The notes below the pieces were generated by a model. That model was not told the origin of the DNA. It worked only from the letters and a program-made list of their open reading frames with translations, and ran no database searches. The position numbers and the translations under genes were made by a program. Shown here one piece after another: positions 1,803 to 7,401 of a stretch of DNA of 64,000 bases. Numbering within the stretch: position 1 is the first letter of the stretch; each line of letters begins with the position of its first letter. This stretch comes from Prorocentrum cordatum (taxonomy: Eukaryota; Sar; Dinophyceae; Prorocentrales; Prorocentraceae). The stretch is from NCBI GenBank assembly GCA_963575745.1, contig CAUYUJ010017837.1, positions 1,177,690 through 1,241,689 on the forward strand, written 5' to 3'.

Positions 1803-3184
1803 TCACCTCGCATCTTTGTTTTGCTTGCGCGCGCTCTTGAAATTGATTTGTTTTCCGCTGCTTATAGAACGGAGGATATAGTGAAGGTTGGGGGCCCTCA
1901 ACATATTCAGCCGCAGCCCAACAGGGCCCTCCAAAGCGCAGATCAACTCCAGAATCGGTCCCAGGCCCGCCAACGCGTTCCCAATGAAAAAAATAAGGTC
2001 GTCACAATACGCAAGCAGTCGGTCCATGTGTTGGCTGCCTTTATGCAGGAGCCACCTCAAAATCGGATCCGAGGCTAAGGCAAAAGGCACATGCTCGATG
2101 GGCCCCCCCTGCCGTACACCCCTCCCGATAGCAATCCAAATGTCTAAAACCATCCCACCCAGCATGATTGCCCTTGTGCTGTTGGCATAAAGGGCACTGG
2201 GGGGGGGGGGGGGGGGCAAAAAGATCGCTGTCGGCGCGCCCGTGGCATAGAGAACCTGCAGAATCCACGCGACGTGAATCGACGAAAGGCCGCCGCAAAG
2301 TCCGTCAGCAACTGCAAGCTATAGGGGGCGCCCCCAAGAGATTGCTGATATCCCCACCTATCAGCAATCGCGATATTCGACGAGATATGCCGTCCCTTGA
2401 CTCCACCCCTCTGGCCCCCACGCACAGTGCGCTCCGCAGGCCGCGCAAGCGGAGAGCCAAATGCAAGCGACATAGTCTTCGCATCCGAATCGCAAAGTGC
2501 CAGAGGCCTCGTAACCTCTGGGCTCCGCGTGATACTATGGGAGGCATCATCGGGGCAAGCGCCTTTGGACAAGAAGAAGAGTAGCATGTCCCTCATATTG
2601 TTGGGCAATGTGGTGCTATGGTTAGTGCATAGCTAAAGGTAGAGATCATAGAATAGTTCAATGCCACCCTCCACTTGCCAAGCAGCATAAGGCAAACCGT
2701 CTTTACCTGGAGCAGTGCCACGCCTCCACTTCACCCGATCGGCAACGCTGTCGTAGTCGAGCATCCACTCAGGCCGCTGGGCCACGGGTAGATCTTCAGC
2801 TCTACGGCAAGACTGCAAGAGCTCAGGCCAGAGCGTGCGATCAACCTCTCTCTCACGAAAGACCTCCCCCCAATGGTTAGCCAGTTCCCTCCCCACTTCC
2901 TCTGCGCCAGCACAGACCGCGCCTTCAGACGTGCGGATGCCGTTCAGAAACGCACGCCGTCGGAACTGCTGCCAGAAGAGCCGGCTACGCTGAAGCTTAT
3001 TCTTCACGCGGTCCTGCTCGATCTCACCCTCCACCACCACCCCGCCGCTAGCATTTTCCATATACCGCTCCTGCTGCTCAATATGTTCCAGCTGAAGGTG
3101 CGCAGCGCGCGCGCATGCGGCATTCAAATCCGCGCGTGCGAGCCGTTCAACATCGAAGAAAGCCTCCAGACGTGGGTATGCCAC
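1803..3184 (-). pseudogene. LINE ORF2, reverse transcriptase domain (stop and frameshift)
   Basis: From 3184 the frame reads through a basic helical pre-RT region and reaches RGTAPGKDGLPYAAW, the finger-domain signature of non-LTR reverse transcriptases (GxDGxPYxxW). An in-frame TAG follows at about 2633. The same frame continues with LLFFLSKGACPDD and RPLALCDSDAKTMSLAF, matching the P-K-G and R-P-I-x-L conserved blocks. At the G run (about 2201-2217) the frame shifts to IGRGVRQGGPIEHVPFALAS and LLAYCDDLIFFIG, where YCDD is the catalytic YxDD box. Sequence after GLRLN degrades at the 3' end. The catalytic Asp pair is kept, but the stop and shift rule out a normal product. Confidence 0.8.
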
Positions 3185-3905
3185 AAACGCTCGCGCACAA
3201 AGGTGGAGCTGCCTAATCTAACCCCCCGCACAGCACTCATCGTCCAGTAATGTTGTTCCACGAGCGCGGCAGCCGGGCGGCAACTAATCTTTCGGCGGAC
3301 CTCAACTAGACTGGCCTGGGTCCGTTCCTTGGCCGACTGCACTCGCGCCGACGCTGGAACATCCGCTGGAAGCGCCGAAAAAATCGCACTGGCAACCTCC
3401 TTGCACTCCTGTGTGCGGCGCAACCATACGGGGACACAACGTGACCGACGAGGATCGAACTTCGCGATCGAGAACACGATGGGTCGACGGTCGGAGGGGC
3501 AGCGGTCCAGGGGTCCATGCGCCGTCGTCGTCGCCGTAAGGTCAGCGGGCATGGCACCGGGGGCGTCACTATAAACCCGATCGAACCTGGATGTATGGCG
3601 AACAATGGCCTCAGCATTCCAACCGAGCCGCGTCGGTTCGTGCTGAATGTACTCTAGCCAGCGCTCACAAACACGATTGACAGATCATGGTGCGGCCTAT
3701 CTCCCTCGCTCCATAGCTGACCACCCTCCGTCATCCCCCCTTCGCCCCACAACGTAAAGTTCCAATCTCCCAGCACAATATTGAGAGAATGCGCACCACT
3801 AGGCAACCGAGCAGTGAGACTACGAAGGGCACGCTCGTATATCGGCAACCCTGGGTTAGTATTAGGTATGTGACAGTTGGCAATCGTCACACAACCATCG
3901 TCGTT
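3124..3905 (-). pseudogene. LINE ORF2, C-terminal endonuclease segment
   Basis: The endonuclease resumes at 3905 with NDDGCVTIANCHIPN, then NIVLGDWNF (the GDxN active-site strand of EEP nucleases) near 3780. After a frame change it gives SDRRPIVFSI near 3485, in the position of the terminal SDH motif with His replaced by Arg. The following linker, rich in Ala, Arg and Cys, leads into the pre-RT region. The replaced His would be expected to cripple the nuclease. Several frame changes and the nested insertion make this a relic. Confidence 0.65.
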
Positions 3906-4937
3906 TCAAAATGGGACCAGCTTTTGAGAACAGGTCGGGCTATAGGTTTGATCGGCGGTCCTCCCTGCGAGACATGGTCAGCAGCGAGGTGGCAGGAGCT
4001 CAGAGTTGCTGACCGATATCGTCCACCTGCTCCCCCCCGTACTCTCAAACATCGCTGGGGTAGGCCTGATGTCAGTCTCCGTCAGCATCAACAGCTCTCC
4101 ATCGGCTCTCAGCTCCTGCTCAGCCAGCACCAGTTGATGCTGACCTGCCTGGAGGTAGGAGCTCGTGCACTGAAAGAGCACCCTGAGGTTGCTCACTGGG
4201 AACAAAGGGCGCCCAGTTCGTGGCAGTCTGCCACGTCGTGTGCTCTGAGTGCTGCTCCCCCCTCTCGCATGGTCTCATTCGACCAATGTGTTTTCGGCCA
4301 AGTGAGCAAGGCCCCGACGACGTTTCTTTGTATTCGGTTGAGTTCCCTCGTGGAGGATATTCTGAGTCAAGGAAAAAGGGGAAGGTGCCCACGCCCGAAG
4401 AAGACCCACACCACCCTCCTCGGCATTGACCCGACCACAGGAAAATGGCGTGCGGCTCCCAAGAAAAGGTATCCTCAGGATCTATGCGCTGCCATGGCCA
4501 GAGCTGTTGCCCAATATGTGGAAGAGGCTTTCGGTTTGTGTGTTCCCGATGATCTAGATTCTAGTGGCCTTCCTGACGAGCTGAGCGCCTTCTTTCAGGC
4601 TCTCGATTTATATGCTGCAGACACCGCGGAAGGTCAGGCTGGTATAGCTCTCGGTGTTGCTGGTTTCAGATCGAAGGGGCCCCGGGACACCCGTTTCGAC
4701 CGCCCCCTTGAGTGTGTTGCCCCTCCCCCACTGGCGAGACCTCAGCAGGCTCCAGATGTTGGTTCGGCTGGGGGCGCGGCTGTGGAGCCTGAACCCTGGC
4801 CTGTGGAGGAGGAGGACCCGTGGGCGGAGGAAGGCATGCTCCCAGTCTCGAGAGGCGGCTGGTGTCCCGTGGGATCCCCAACCCCCCCCTCCTCCTCCTC
4901 CTCCCCCCCCCCGTCCCGCCCGCGTGGAGCTCAGTGA
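3906..4937 (+). CDS. Retroelement protein with cytosine-methyltransferase motif-IV-like sequence, 5' truncated
   Basis: About 344 residues remain after the junction; the open frame extends upstream only by chance through antisense LINE sequence. Near its start is LIGGPPCETWSAARWQE. The GGPPC segment resembles motif IV of C5-cytosine methyltransferases (G-P-P-C, catalytic Cys), and ALKEHPEVAHWEQ follows about 100 residues later. A middle segment runs through FLCIRLSSLVEDI and a basic stretch (KRGRCPRPKKTH) to YPQDLCAAMARAVAQYVEEA; the C terminus is Pro/Glu-rich and low in complexity. I recall similar GGPPCETWS proteins as common in dinoflagellate repeats, but cannot check this here. I do not see the other methyltransferase motifs (the SAM-binding FxGxG and the ENV motif), so activity is unproven; the missing N-terminal part may have held them. 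Confidence 0.55.
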   Translation, partial: SKWDQLLRTGRAIGLIGGPPCETWSAARWQELRVADRYRPPAPPRTLKHRWGRPDVSLRQHQQLSIGSQLLLSQHQLMLTCLEVGARALKEHPEVAHWEQRAPSSWQSATSCALSAAPPSRMVSFDQCVFGQVSKAPTTFLCIRLSSLVEDILSQGKRGRCPRPKKTHTTLLGIDPTTGKWRAAPKKRYPQDLCAAMARAVAQYVEEAFGLCVPDDLDSSGLPDELSAFFQALDLYAADTAEGQAGIALGVAGFRSKGPRDTRFDRPLECVAPPPLARPQQAPDVGSAGGAAVEPEPWPVEEEDPWAEEGMLPVSRGGWCPVGSPTPPSSSSSPPPSRPRGAQ

Positions 4938-5258
4938 CGAGCTCCGACGCCAGGTCCAGGCTCGGCGGGATCAAGCACGTTTCCGTCGAGCTGTTCGACG
5001 CTCGCTTCCAGCAGGAGGCGTCTTCTCTTCTGCTGATGCGCGCGCGCCCCCTCTCCCCACGGAGTGTGAGAGGCAGGCGCTGCGAGCGCACTCCCTCCTA
5101 TGCAGTGCTGCAGGGTGTGGACCAGGCGCGGTGGGATAGGGGCCCCACCTTCTTTTTTGTTGATGTATTGTGTCTCTCTTGCATAGCGCTTGATTGCCAT
5201 TATATCTGTGGGGTAGGCTGACCATGAGCCTCAGAGTCCAGTCCAGTCCAGTCCAGCC
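3906..5258 (+). mobile_element. Nested retroelement-like insertion with (GTCCA)n tail
   Basis: This segment interrupts the LINE endonuclease: the minus-strand reading stops at ITEL (about 5262) and resumes at NDDGCVTIANCHIPN (3905). On the plus strand it holds one long open frame (to 4937), about 300 nt of non-coding sequence, and ends in four tandem GTCCA units at 5235-5256. A short repeated tail with no 5' end is typical of a 5'-truncated insertion from a non-LTR element with a microsatellite tail. I could not define a convincing target-site duplication. Confidence 0.65.
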
Positions 5259-5261
5259 CCC

Positions 5262-5903
5262 CTCAATTCCGTGATCAAAGTCCTCCCGTCCACCGCAACC
5301 ACATGGTTGATATCTGCAAACTGCTGCCGCAGACGATCGCTAAGCACTGTGACCGCTCCACCCGCGGCCGTCGAGTGGAAAAAGCTCGCAAATCTCAGCG
5401 CGTCGCAACCGCTGAAGTAACACAACCACATCCCCCTCATGACCATGGCATTCCTGGAAACAAACCTCATCATACTTCGCGCAAAGTCCCAAAGCGTACG
5501 CAAACTTCCTTGCGCAAATTGAATTACCCCCCGCGAATCCTCCCAGAGAGACCGTTGGTGTTCCACGTGCAGACCGTCACAAAGAAGGGGGGGCTGCAAC
5601 CGACGCCTCGAGCCTCAGGGGGTACCTCAGGAGCCCCATTTGGGTCTGCCATCGGAAATAGCCTAAGAGCTTTATTCGCACATCTAAACAAACCGCAAAC
5701 TTCAATCTCCCCCCCCCCCCCCCCCGAGAAGAGGGGGGCGGGTCGGCTGAACACACAGCGGAAGCTGTTGAAACCAGCAAAGGATTCTCTGGCAATCTAA
5801 CGCACTGGACACGACGCAGCAAGCGGCCAGCCTCGTCGCCCTCACCTTCGCGAAGGATCCCAATCAAGGCTCGCCCAGCTGCACCCACTCGCGCCTCTCG
5901 CAC
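5262..5903 (-). pseudogene. LINE ORF2, N-terminal endonuclease segment (frameshifted)
   Basis: Start of ORF2. After a leader peptide the frame shifts at the C run near 5711-5726; the next frame gives VTVCTWNTNGLSGR, the WNxNGL signature of apurinic-type (EEP) endonucleases in non-LTR elements. A second shift near 5560 leads into FAQGSLRTLWDFARSMMRF and then HVVAVDGRTLITEL at about 5262, where similarity stops at the nested insertion. The continuation is at 3905. The domain nicks target DNA for target-primed reverse transcription. This copy cannot make it in one frame. Confidence 0.7.
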
Positions 5904-5931: not shown

Positions 5932-7059
5932 TCAAAAGGTAGCCACCAGCGCCGCCCTGACCGCAGGCAAGATCGCCTGAAGGCCCAGGCTCACGAACGC
6001 AGCCTCGGCTATCTCGTGCTCCACCTCGTCGCCGTTCAGCTTCAGCTGCACCGTCATCAACGGGCATTCGGGTTTGGTGAGGATGAAGACCGCGCTGCCA
6101 AAGCCGTTCGAGCCCACCTCGTAGCGCGTGCCAATGGCCTCACTGATGACCTTCCGCACTTTCCCCATGACGAGGAAGAGCTTCCCCCCGTGCTGGTTGA
6201 TGTCACGCTTGACACGAAGTTGATACTGCAGCCCATCCGCCAGAGGACTCGGAAACGCCACAGGACCACGAGCCTTGAACGCACTGAAGAAGTCCGAGCA
6301 CTTAGTAGCCGTCGGGAATTCCAAGGTCGCTTTCCTCGACATGTCAAAGGCCTTAATAGTTATGGATGGCCACTCTCTTTGTGGCGCACAAAGATCACGA
6401 ACCTGTTCAGCAGCCCGGCGGAGCGCACGCCCCATCAGTGGAGACTCGAACCCCGCCAGGATCAAGCGGCAGGCGCCCTCCTGCTCGCGCGTCGACGCCA
6501 AGTGCAGGTTGCTGCCAGCGGGCCCACCACCAGGCTTGCTCGTCGCCATCATCTTCAACTTCCTCTCGATGTCCTCCCCCTTCTGCTGGGCGCCAGACGG
6601 GATGGCCGCAATCTTCTCGTCGACGGCCGCCGCCACAGCTGTAGCAATGGCAGCCGTGGATCCTTGCTCAACCACCAGAAGACGTTGATGTACCTGCGCC
6701 AAGTTCTGGTCATGGATCTGAAGAGCACTGGGGAACTCCTGCGCCTCCTGCGCCATCGGCTGCTCGATGCGCTCGATATTGGTGTTCATACCCCTTACCT
6801 CCGTCATGAGGTCCTTGACCCAGACAGGCGGCGTCTCCTTCTGCATGTCATGGCTGGAGCCACGGTGCCCACGGCTGTCCTCGCTGGTGCTGATGCCAGA
6901 GCGTCCGCCTCGGCTCCGACTCCACGACCTGTCCGAACTGGCCGACATCGAACGTGAATGGGAGCTTGCGCGGTGACGCCTCGCGTAGCGGCTCTGGCTA
7001 CGCTGCTCACGCTCCTCCCTCGCAGCCTTGGCAGCCGCCTTCTTCACCCTCGGGCTCAT
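5932..7059 (-). CDS. LINE ORF1 protein (nucleic-acid-binding, coiled coil)
   Basis: Open frame of about 375 residues. I chose the ATG at 7059 (MSPRVKKAAAKAAREERE) because the longer frame begins upstream with a TTG. Residues 1-80 are rich in Arg and Ser with RS-like runs, a basic RNA-binding type of segment. Residues about 85-175 are heptad-like and Gln/Glu/Ala-rich (MTEVRGMNTNIERIEQ, then VHQRLLVVEQ), probably a trimerising coiled coil. The C-terminal half (about 200-370) is a compact mixed alpha/beta region (LILAGFESPL, FFSAFKARGP, GKLFLVMGKVRK) resembling the RRM plus CTD layout of ORF1 proteins, without a diagnostic residue set I can name. It lies directly behind the spliced leader and ahead of the endonuclease. 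Unlike ORF2 it is intact. Its role would be binding the element's RNA in the RNP. Confidence 0.75.
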   Translation of the reverse strand: MSPRVKKAAAKAAREEREQRSQSRYARRHRASSHSRSMSASSDRSWSRSRGGRSGISTSEDSRGHRGSSHDMQKETPPVWVKDLMTEVRGMNTNIERIEQPMAQEAQEFPSALQIHDQNLAQVHQRLLVVEQGSTAAIATAVAAAVDEKIAAIPSGAQQKGEDIERKLKMMATSKPGGGPAGSNLHLASTREQEGACRLILAGFESPLMGRALRRAAEQVRDLCAPQREWPSITIKAFDMSRKATLEFPTATKCSDFFSAFKARGPVAFPSPLADGLQYQLRVKRDINQHGGKLFLVMGKVRKVISEAIGTRYEVGSNGFGSAVFILTKPECPLMTVQLKLNGDEVEHEIAEAAFVSLGLQAILPAVRAALVATF

Positions 7060-7202
7060 CGCGGCGGAGCAGCTGCGACGCAGCAAAATGCTGTATCAAG
7101 TGAAACTGTGAATACAATATGGGAACTGCATGAGGAAGAGTAACAGTCAGCACGTGGTCTGCCTGGGCAGGCACCTGCGACCACGAGCGCGGCACCTCGG
7201 CA

Positions 7203-7239
7203 CTTGAGCCAACATGGCTTGAGCCAAAATGGCTACGGG
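7203..7239 (-). promoter_or_regulatory. Dinoflagellate spliced leader plus relic leader
   Basis: Minus-strand positions 7238-7218 match all 21 invariant bases of the dinoflagellate trans-splicing leader (CCGTAGCC...TGGCTCAAG). Position 7239 gives C where the leader normally has A, G or T. It is followed at once by CCATGTTGGCTCAAG (7217-7203), the last 15 bases of a second leader with one T-to-G change. A leader carries its own AG in CCGTAG, and a later trans-splicing event uses that AG, leaving exactly this 15-base relic. The ORF1 start codon lies about 145 nt further on. The element therefore descends from an mRNA that was trans-spliced, reintegrated, transcribed and trans-spliced again. Confidence 0.92.
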
Positions 7240-7401
7240 GTCTGTTCTGGAGCCTCTTGGGGCCTCCTTGGTGCCTTCTGGCGGGCGCCGGCCCCGGGCG
7301 CCCGGGCCTGGTGCTCCGTTACATGTATAGATGCATACATATATATAATATGCGAAAGCATGATCATATACATCTGCATATGCATATGCATCTGCGCATG
7401 T

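What the first reader, a model, noticed from the sequence alone, without database searches (positions are those of the whole stretch)
7203..7239. Tandem spliced-leader relic at the 5' end of a LINE
The leader (7238-7218) is followed without a gap by the 15-nt relic CCATGTTGGCTCAAG, exactly what is left when a second trans-splicing uses the AG inside an integrated leader. It sits 145 nt before ORF1 of a LINE. Relic leaders are known from retroposed dinoflagellate mRNAs; here the recycled transcript is itself the retrotransposon. The LINE RNA therefore appears to have been trans-spliced at least twice and mobilised with its leader. This would give the element a capped, translatable mRNA and a datable record of its mobilisation cycles.
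Basis: partly seen in the sequence, partly recalled or inferred. Interest (0 to 1): 0.88.

Follow-up and report, generated by a model that had tools for sequence, protein, structure and literature searches.

The report
Leader-headed LINE elements in a dinoflagellate
A jumping gene (LINE) in what appears to be a dinoflagellate genome starts with two stacked copies of the short leader that the cell splices onto its messages, and many other LINEs there also start with that leader, so these elements seem to copy themselves from the cell's processed messages.

Summary
Window 7238-7218 (-) is a perfect 21-nt dinoflagellate spliced leader (DinoSL), followed without a gap by a 15-nt relic (7217-7203, one substitution); chance is excluded. 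It heads a decayed LINE: 143-nt 5'UTR, intact ORF1 (7059-5932), broken ORF2 with reverse transcriptase (RT) at 2605-1902. Of 40 leader sites sampled from 33,832, 23 have LINE RT downstream in sense and none in antisense. Tandem leader+relic matches number 5,603. Most likely LINE RNAs are trans-spliced and the leader-bearing mRNA is what integrates; this copy records two leader additions. Leader-bearing retrotransposons have been suggested in flatworms (PMC12582326, PMC5832876); my library searches showed none for dinoflagellate LINEs. Not shown: RNA, this LINE's 3' end and target-site duplication (assembly gap), the fraction of LINEs without a leader, and whether an integration separated the two additions.

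The parts
7239..7300 (-). Flank upstream of the element, with CCAAGAGG-type repeat sequence that also precedes the leader in sister copies L054, L055 and L059 (in part L057)
   Evidence: flanks of the copies are otherwise not homologous
7218..7238 (-). Perfect DinoSL (21 nt, without the variable first base), the 5' boundary of the element
   Evidence: sister copies start at the same leader
7203..7217 (-). 15-nt leader relic, truncated after the leader's internal AG, one T-to-G change
7060..7202 (-). 5'UTR, 143 nt; about the last 60 nt (7119-7060) align with sister copies, the part next to the relic does not
5932..7059 (-). ORF1, 375 aa, intact; 109 scored matches in the assembly (window included)
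3460..5649 (-). Remains of the ORF2 endonuclease part (about 5649-5255 and 3905-3460), split by an insertion on the other strand
   Evidence: Read-through of the pieces: Exo_endo_phos E 3.8e-4, 20.7 bits, under Pfam's cut-off of 24.5; boundaries by eye
1902..2605 (-). Remains of the ORF2 reverse transcriptase, with YCDD motif
   Evidence: RT profile E 2.5e-11 and 6.7e-5; solved RT 8gh6 E 1.1e-6; Pfam RVT_1 not reached

Best explanation
This is a decayed copy of a LINE whose RNA received the host's spliced leader by trans-splicing, and the leader-bearing mRNA was the template that was reverse-transcribed and integrated. SHOWN from sequence: (1) leader and truncated relic at the 5' boundary of a LINE; (2) a leader or relic at the 5' boundary of the six nearest independent copies, five at one junction, in non-homologous flanks; (3) LINE RT in sense downstream of 23 of 40 sampled leaders; (4) thousands of leader+relic tandems in the assembly. 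INFERRED: (5) an ancestor copy was transcribed from outside, splicing used the AG inside its integrated leader (CCGTAG|), and the product (new leader plus 15-nt relic) integrated here, making two leader additions; (6) the leader gives the LINE mRNA a cap; (7) the leader carries its own acceptor AGs, so a copy landing in read-through transcription could regain a processed 5' end without a promoter of its own.
For: Perfect leader plus in-register relic, not chance. RT in the same orientation downstream. All six independent copies among the seven nearest have leader or relic, five with the same junction, 89-97% identical after the leader; the 100 nt before it align at 57-78% against a mean of 60% and a maximum of 79% for 200 unrelated pairs. 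23 of 40 sampled leader sites have RT in sense 2.1-4.9 kb downstream, 0 of 40 in antisense (sign test 2.4e-7); 6 of the 23 supplied the profile, so the profile found RT in 17 of the other 34. Pfam RVT_1 above its cut-off in 5 of 7 frames tested. L020, L025 and L051 have leader, exact relic and RT. 36 of 40 matches to a leader+UTR query start at leader base 1, three at base 5.
Against: No RNA evidence. 17 of 40 sampled leader sites showed no RT. The fraction of LINEs without a leader was not measured; the ranking favours leader-bearing copies, and the leader-free control query did not complete. The 3' end and target-site duplication of the window element cannot be seen. The base before the leader is C here, while it is T in 36 of 40 sampled sites. 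Much of the window copy's UTR does not align with its sisters. RT in the window is below Pfam's detection.
Confidence: 0.85

Rival explanations
1. Both leaders were added at the RNA level in one cycle: a trans-spliced LINE mRNA was trans-spliced again at the AG inside its own leader before reverse transcription, so only one integration is recorded.
For: The product would look the same; one substitution in the relic against none in the leader is no proof of age (Fisher p 0.42).
Against: The relic differs by one base from the leader, easiest if it spent time as DNA (though a leader variant with the same base was once reported, PMC7245778, passage). Stacks of three or more relics occur, which would need repeated re-splicing of one RNA.
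Confidence: 0.15
2. Leader-headed LINE copies are dead ends: LINE transcripts are occasionally trans-spliced like any host mRNA and integrate as processed copies, but the active lineage has another 5' end.
For: Retroposition of leader-tagged host mRNAs is general in dinoflagellates (PMC6050394, PMC12014239). 17 of 40 sampled leaders had no LINE RT. I did not survey LINEs without a leader.
Against: Leader-headed elements include long open frames with endonuclease and RT (1869 codons in L016, 1444 in L022); the same junction recurs in copies that differ by 3-11%; relics show that some leader-bearing RNAs were leader-spliced again.
Confidence: 0.25
3. The leader belongs to an SL RNA gene, or a leader cDNA inserted beside the LINE by accident, or the LINE is site-specific for SL RNA genes.
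For: Leader sequence sits next to a LINE; LINEs that insert into SL RNA genes exist in other organisms (recalled: SLACS, CZAR, NeSL).
Against: No GT donor after the leader here, whereas L003 shows leader followed by GTACGCAACC as in an SL RNA gene; no Rfam match, so no 5S rRNA, in the window; six sister copies share the arrangement in non-homologous flanks; relic truncation fits splicing at AG.
Confidence: 0.02
4. ORF1 is a leader-tagged host retrogene that happens to lie beside an unrelated broken LINE.
For: ORF1 has no family match above threshold and no relative in the protein search; I did not check for RT behind ORF1 in the sister copies.
Against: ORF1 and RT are co-oriented and 283 nt apart at the ORF1/ORF2 border; ORF1 is a repeat family with 109 scored matches in the assembly; elsewhere leaders are followed by endonuclease and RT at LINE-like distances.
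Confidence: 0.06

Closest known systems
DinoSL relic retrogenes of dinoflagellates (Slamovits and Keeling 2008, not read; described in PMC12014239, PMC6050394, PMC3229502, PMC7245778, passages or section read)
   Same: Perfect leader followed by a 15-nt relic cut after the leader's AG; same 22+15 signature; explained by trans-splicing, reverse transcription, integration and re-splicing.
   Different: Those reports concern host genes or transcripts; here the recycled RNA is the autonomous LINE itself, with endonuclease and RT in its relatives.
Leader remnants at flatworm retrotransposons (PMC12582326 and PMC5832876, passages read)
   Same: Partial leader sequences at LTR and LINE elements (597 discarded loci in one study; six SL-containing transposable or retrotransposable elements in the other), explained as possible integration of trans-spliced retrotransposon RNAs.
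   Different: Mentioned in passing there; the passages I saw show no shared junctions, stacked relics or sister-copy test, and a different, unrelated leader.
Trypanosomatid L1Tc/ingi LINEs with Pr77 (PMC8190864, passages read)
   Same: LINEs in a genome that trans-splices its mRNAs; a conserved stretch at the 5' end.
   Different: Pr77 is an internal promoter (with a ribozyme) that makes unspliced transcripts; here the leader itself is at the 5' end and no ribozyme family was found in five sister 5' ends.
Endogenous dinoRNAV elements with a relict dinoSL (PMC10235124, passages read)
   Same: Leader-tagged RNA integrated into dinoflagellate DNA; LINEs proposed as the machinery.
   Different: There the integrated RNA is viral and the LINE is a helper; here the LINE carries the leader.
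LINEs specific for SL RNA genes (SLACS, CZAR, NeSL; recalled, no call)
   Same: A leader sequence lies next to a LINE.
   Different: Those insert into SL RNA genes; here the leader exon is whole, flanks are repeats, and relics are cut at the AG.

Membership tests
LINE (APE-type non-LTR retrotransposon) | LINE-like reverse transcriptase | tested here: met
   Profile E 2.5e-11 and 6.7e-5 at 2605-1902; solved RT 8gh6 E 1.1e-6. Against: no Pfam RVT_1 match in the window.
LINE (APE-type non-LTR retrotransposon) | AP-type endonuclease before the RT | tested here: inconclusive
   Window read-through reaches Exo_endo_phos at E 3.8e-4, under the cut-off, and the local endonuclease profile lists no window hit; above cut-off in leader-headed L016, L022, L020.
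LINE (APE-type non-LTR retrotransposon) | ORF1 of a repeat family upstream of ORF2 | tested here: met
   109 scored matches to ORF1 in the assembly; nucleic-acid-binding fold not shown (model mean pLDDT 42).
LINE (APE-type non-LTR retrotransposon) | Target-site duplication and 3' tail | not testable with these tools
   The 3' side runs into an assembly gap; no duplication found on the visible side.
DinoSL relic retroposed transcript | Perfect or near-perfect 22-nt leader followed by a 15-nt relic cut after the leader's AG | tested here: met
   21 of 21 plus 14 of 15; first base of the 22 is C instead of A/G/T.
DinoSL relic retroposed transcript | Leader marks the border between inserted transcript and unrelated flank | tested here: met
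   Homology among copies starts at the leader.
DinoSL relic retroposed transcript | Leader-bearing transcript observed as RNA | not testable with these tools
   No RNA data held.
SL RNA gene | Leader exon followed by a GT donor and SL RNA intron | tested here: not met
   Leader followed by CCATGTTGG; contrast L003; no Rfam match in the window.
SL-gene-specific LINE (SLACS/NeSL-like) | Insertion inside SL RNA genes | tested here: not met
   Whole leader exon, repeat flanks that are not homologous between copies, no 5S rRNA or other Rfam match in the window.

The most novel reading that the evidence does not exclude
Several LINE lineages of this genome have given up a promoter-defined 5' end and use the host leader as a portable, self-renewing one. 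The integrated leader brings its own acceptors: its internal AG gives leader+relic stacks, and its terminal CAAG could give a clean leader swap with no relic. Any copy landing in read-through transcription, often next to a (CTC)n or CCAAGAGG repeat, could then regain a processed mRNA and move again. In one group of families a shared stretch of about 106 nt directly after the leader is kept while ORF1 diverges to about 35% identity.
Probability: 0.35. Interest if true: 0.88.

Novelty: new variant of a known kind. Interest (0 to 1): 0.76.

Why it matters
It gives sequence evidence that autonomous LINEs, one suspected source of the machinery that makes dinoflagellate retrogenes, are themselves mobilised as leader-bearing processed mRNAs. 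Leader+relic tandems have been used as a signature of host retrogenes (PMC12014239); in this assembly 3 of the 5 sampled sites with an exact relic head sequences with LINE RT, so such counts may need filtering for transposons. Relic number could order rounds of LINE mobilisation, and leader-primed cDNA would show which LINE copies are transcribed. It also suggests how a LINE could do without its own promoter in a genome thought to be transcribed by read-through.

Tried and rejected
Chance: rejected. SL RNA gene or SL/5S array: rejected. Secondary insertion of a leader beside the LINE: rejected by sister copies. Target-site duplication: the last 25 nt before the leader gave no better match on the 3' side than shuffles (191 of 200 shuffles scored as high), and that side runs into N. 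Protein relatives: ORF1 none, ORF2 read-through none; Pfam gave nothing useful on single pieces, nothing on the whole ORF2 read-through or on the RT read-through. The ORF1 model is too poor to use (mean pLDDT 42); no fold search was made. Other collections: no relative of ORF1 or the RT piece in viral contigs; RT piece not in phages; 5' end not in phages; tandem leader absent from viral contigs and genome contigs. Rfam on five sister 5' ends: nothing up to E 1. The 5' module folds better than shuffles in some copies (z -3.2, -0.5, -2.4, -2.0, -3.8), but in six sequences only 2 of 40 consensus pairs show a compensatory change and 13 contain breaks, so the structure is a lead only. 'Relic older than leader' is not statistically supported. 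The leader-free UTR query meant to remove the ranking bias did not complete. I did not count how many LINEs lack a leader.

Full report
OBSERVATION. The minus strand reads ...CCAGAACAGACC CCGTAGCCATTTTGGCTCAAG CCATGTTGGCTCAAG TGCCGAGG.... The first block is the dinoflagellate spliced leader without its variable first base, 21 of 21; the second is the 15 nt that remain after the AG inside the leader, with one T-to-G change. A 22-nt leader pattern with up to three mismatches has two matches in 64 kb and none in 100 dinucleotide shuffles. By composition, 2.4e-8 perfect leaders are expected in the window, and the chance of an adjacent relic with at most one mismatch is 3e-8. A leader with the same T-to-G change was once reported from one Polarella transcript but not recovered in a later search (PMC7245778, passage), so the change may be a mutation or a variant leader.

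WHAT FOLLOWS IT. A 143-nt UTR leads to ORF1 (ATG 7059, 375 aa, intact); none of 500 shuffles of the 1.5-kb region gave so long a stop-free frame, and G+C by codon position (0.61, 0.49, 0.75) looks coding. ORF2 is broken by frameshifts and by an insertion of roughly 1.35 kb on the other strand (boundaries by eye). The piece with the YCDD motif matches a solved reverse transcriptase, E 1.1e-6. A profile built from RT domains of six leader-headed elements of the same assembly hits the 64-kb window, both strands, only at 2605-2282 and 2288-1902 on the minus strand (E 2.5e-11 and 6.7e-5). A read-through of the endonuclease pieces reaches Exo_endo_phos at E 3.8e-4, under Pfam's cut-off. Against this, Pfam finds no RVT_1 in the window pieces or their read-through, and protein searches for ORF1 and ORF2 found nothing.

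THE DECISIVE TEST. The window lies in an unnamed 4.13-Gb assembly of 21,875 contigs. That it is a dinoflagellate is my inference from the leader and the genome size. ORF1 has 109 scored matches there, of 23,688 first-look candidates. I fetched the 5' ends of the seven matches, besides the window itself, whose alignment starts at ORF1 residue 1. All seven have a leader or relic. One, L053, is identical to the window over the whole 381 nt including 151 nt of flank, so it is a duplicate of the same insertion and is not counted. Of the six others, four have a perfect leader and one has one mismatch, all five joined at the same point (CAAG|TTCGAAACGTTGCCCC); the sixth, L058, has an exact 15-nt relic preceded by GCGAAG, joined about 40 nt further downstream. 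After the leader the five copies are 89-97% identical; in the 100 nt before it they align at 57-78%, against a mean of 60% and a maximum of 79% for 200 unrelated pairs. The element therefore begins at the leader. The window copy's own UTR aligns with its sisters only over about its last 60 nt; the stretch next to the relic differs, perhaps because an earlier cycle spliced onto an acceptor in flanking DNA (inference).

HOW WIDE IT IS. The leader with up to two mismatches occurs 33,832 times, against 9 for the reversed pattern. I took 40 of the first 41 listed sites, all with a perfect leader, with about 6 kb downstream. RT was found in sense in 23 of 40, starting 2.1-4.9 kb after the leader, and in antisense in 0 of 40 (sign test 2.4e-7). 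Six of these 23 (L012, L016, L018, L020, L022, L028) supplied the profile; among the other 34 loci the profile found RT in 17. Endonuclease was found in sense in 12 of 40, three of them its seeds. Seventeen of 40 showed no RT; two loci, L021 and L046, contain runs of N. Pfam gives RVT_1 above its cut-off in five of seven long frames tested (L016, L022, L020, L018, L028), just under it in L012 and none in L029; Exo_endo_phos is above its cut-off in L016, L022 and L020. In L016 a 1869-codon open frame runs from within the leader, with an ATG directly after it. ATG follows the leader immediately in 9 of 40 sites, and all nine have RT. Five of 40 have an exact relic, three of them with RT. Two of 40 have GT after the leader as an SL RNA gene would, and both have RT. 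The tandem (last 8 nt of the leader plus 15-nt relic, up to two mismatches) matches 5,603 times against 1 for the control; a stack counts once per relic, and stacks of three or more at 15-nt spacing occur.

SHARED 5' MODULE. A query made of L054's leader, UTR and 51 nt of ORF1 gave 40 scored matches of 627 candidates: 36 begin at base 1, three at base 5, one (L058) at base 61. Thirteen of the 40, 93-95% identical over about bases 1-127, lie just upstream of ORF1 matches that are only 33-35% identical (searches compared), so about 106 nt after the leader are shared more widely than the protein. L015 has leader, exact relic and a diverged form of this module at the same acceptor; no RT was found behind it. 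The ranking favours copies with a leader; the control query without it did not complete. Folding of the module beats shuffles in some copies only, and covariation support is thin.

TARGETS. In 24 of 40 sampled sites the 20-nt stretch before the leader matches (CTC)n or (GAG)n at 15 or more positions, against about 1.1-1.3% of background positions. The shared sequence of L016 and L028 ends in ...GTTACGTTCG followed by (CTC)n. In the window family CCAAGAGG-type repeats precede the leader instead (window, L054, L055, L059 clearly; L057 in part; not L058). Such CTC tracts could also supply pyrimidines for the leader's internal AG (inference).

MECHANISM. LINE RNAs, probably made by read-through, are trans-spliced to DinoSL near their 5' end; the processed mRNA is reverse-transcribed and inserted with its leader. 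If such a copy is transcribed again from outside, splicing at the leader's internal AG leaves leader + 15-nt relic; this copy records that once. A clean swap at the leader's terminal CAAG would explain single leaders at a constant junction without relics, but so would a source gene with a fixed acceptor. These steps are inferred from DNA.

KNOWN WORK. Relic leaders on host retrogenes are well known, and 5% of retrogenes in one survey carry two or more relics (PMC12014239, section read; PMC6050394, PMC3229502, PMC7245778, passages). Leader remnants at mobile elements were noticed in flatworms and explained as possible integrated trans-spliced retrotransposons (597 loci, PMC12582326; six elements, PMC5832876; passages). 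Trypanosomatid LINEs instead make unspliced RNAs from Pr77 (PMC8190864, passages). Nine searches on leaders and retroelements (a tenth was about giant viruses) and the passages seen in PMC8045281, PMC11453091, PMC10235124, PMC3942190, PMC11071213 and PMC10666404 showed no report of leader-headed LINEs in dinoflagellates. The library holds open-access papers only; Slamovits and Keeling 2008 was not looked up, and Song et al. 2017 and Chen et al. 2018 are not held.

VERDICT. Open points are RNA evidence, the leader-blind fraction of LINEs, 3' ends, and whether relic-bearing copies keep moving.

Noticed in passing
L001 (IMGVR_UViG_3300045993_001077), 2913-2893 and 2766-2746 (-): An AT-rich contig of the viral collection with a glycosyltransferase ORF carries two perfect DinoSLs; the second lies 45 nt before a GC-richer 254-aa ORF, as if a leader-tagged dinoflagellate mRNA had been captured.
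   Followed up: partly
L012-L051, 20 nt before the leader: 24 of 40 sampled leader sites are preceded by (CTC)n or (GAG)n, against about 1% background: a possible insertion-target preference.
   Followed up: partly
L012, L016, L018, L028, L030, L038, L040, L043, L044: ATG directly after the leader in 9 of 40 sites, all nine with RT downstream: a leader of 22 nt may be the whole 5'UTR.
   Followed up: partly
window 3900-5245 (+), approximate: Insertion on the other strand inside ORF2, with a 382-aa frame (GGPPCETWS motif, no Pfam match) and an AGTCC-type repeat at its end; perhaps a 5'-truncated nested retroelement.
   Followed up: no
window 7126 (-): The AG with the richest pyrimidine tract between 7308 and 7042 (ACTCTTCCTCATGCAG|) lies between relic and ORF1; splicing there would erase both leaders.
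   Followed up: no
L003 4354-4334 (-) (JAKUNN010000063.1, titled Dehalococcoidia MAG) and L002 32-52 (+): DinoSL in contigs filed under bacterial MAGs; L003 looks like an SL RNA gene (leader followed by GTACGCAACC), so probably eukaryotic contamination.
   Followed up: partly
L017 and L029: Two copies with a similar UTR: L017 has a degraded relic cut at the AG, L029 keeps a degraded whole leader behind the new one, as if the acceptor lay in the flank just before the old leader.
   Followed up: no
window 7202-7120 (-): The UTR next to the relic does not align with the sister copies, while 7119-7060 does: possible capture of flanking DNA as a new 5'UTR in an earlier cycle.
   Followed up: no
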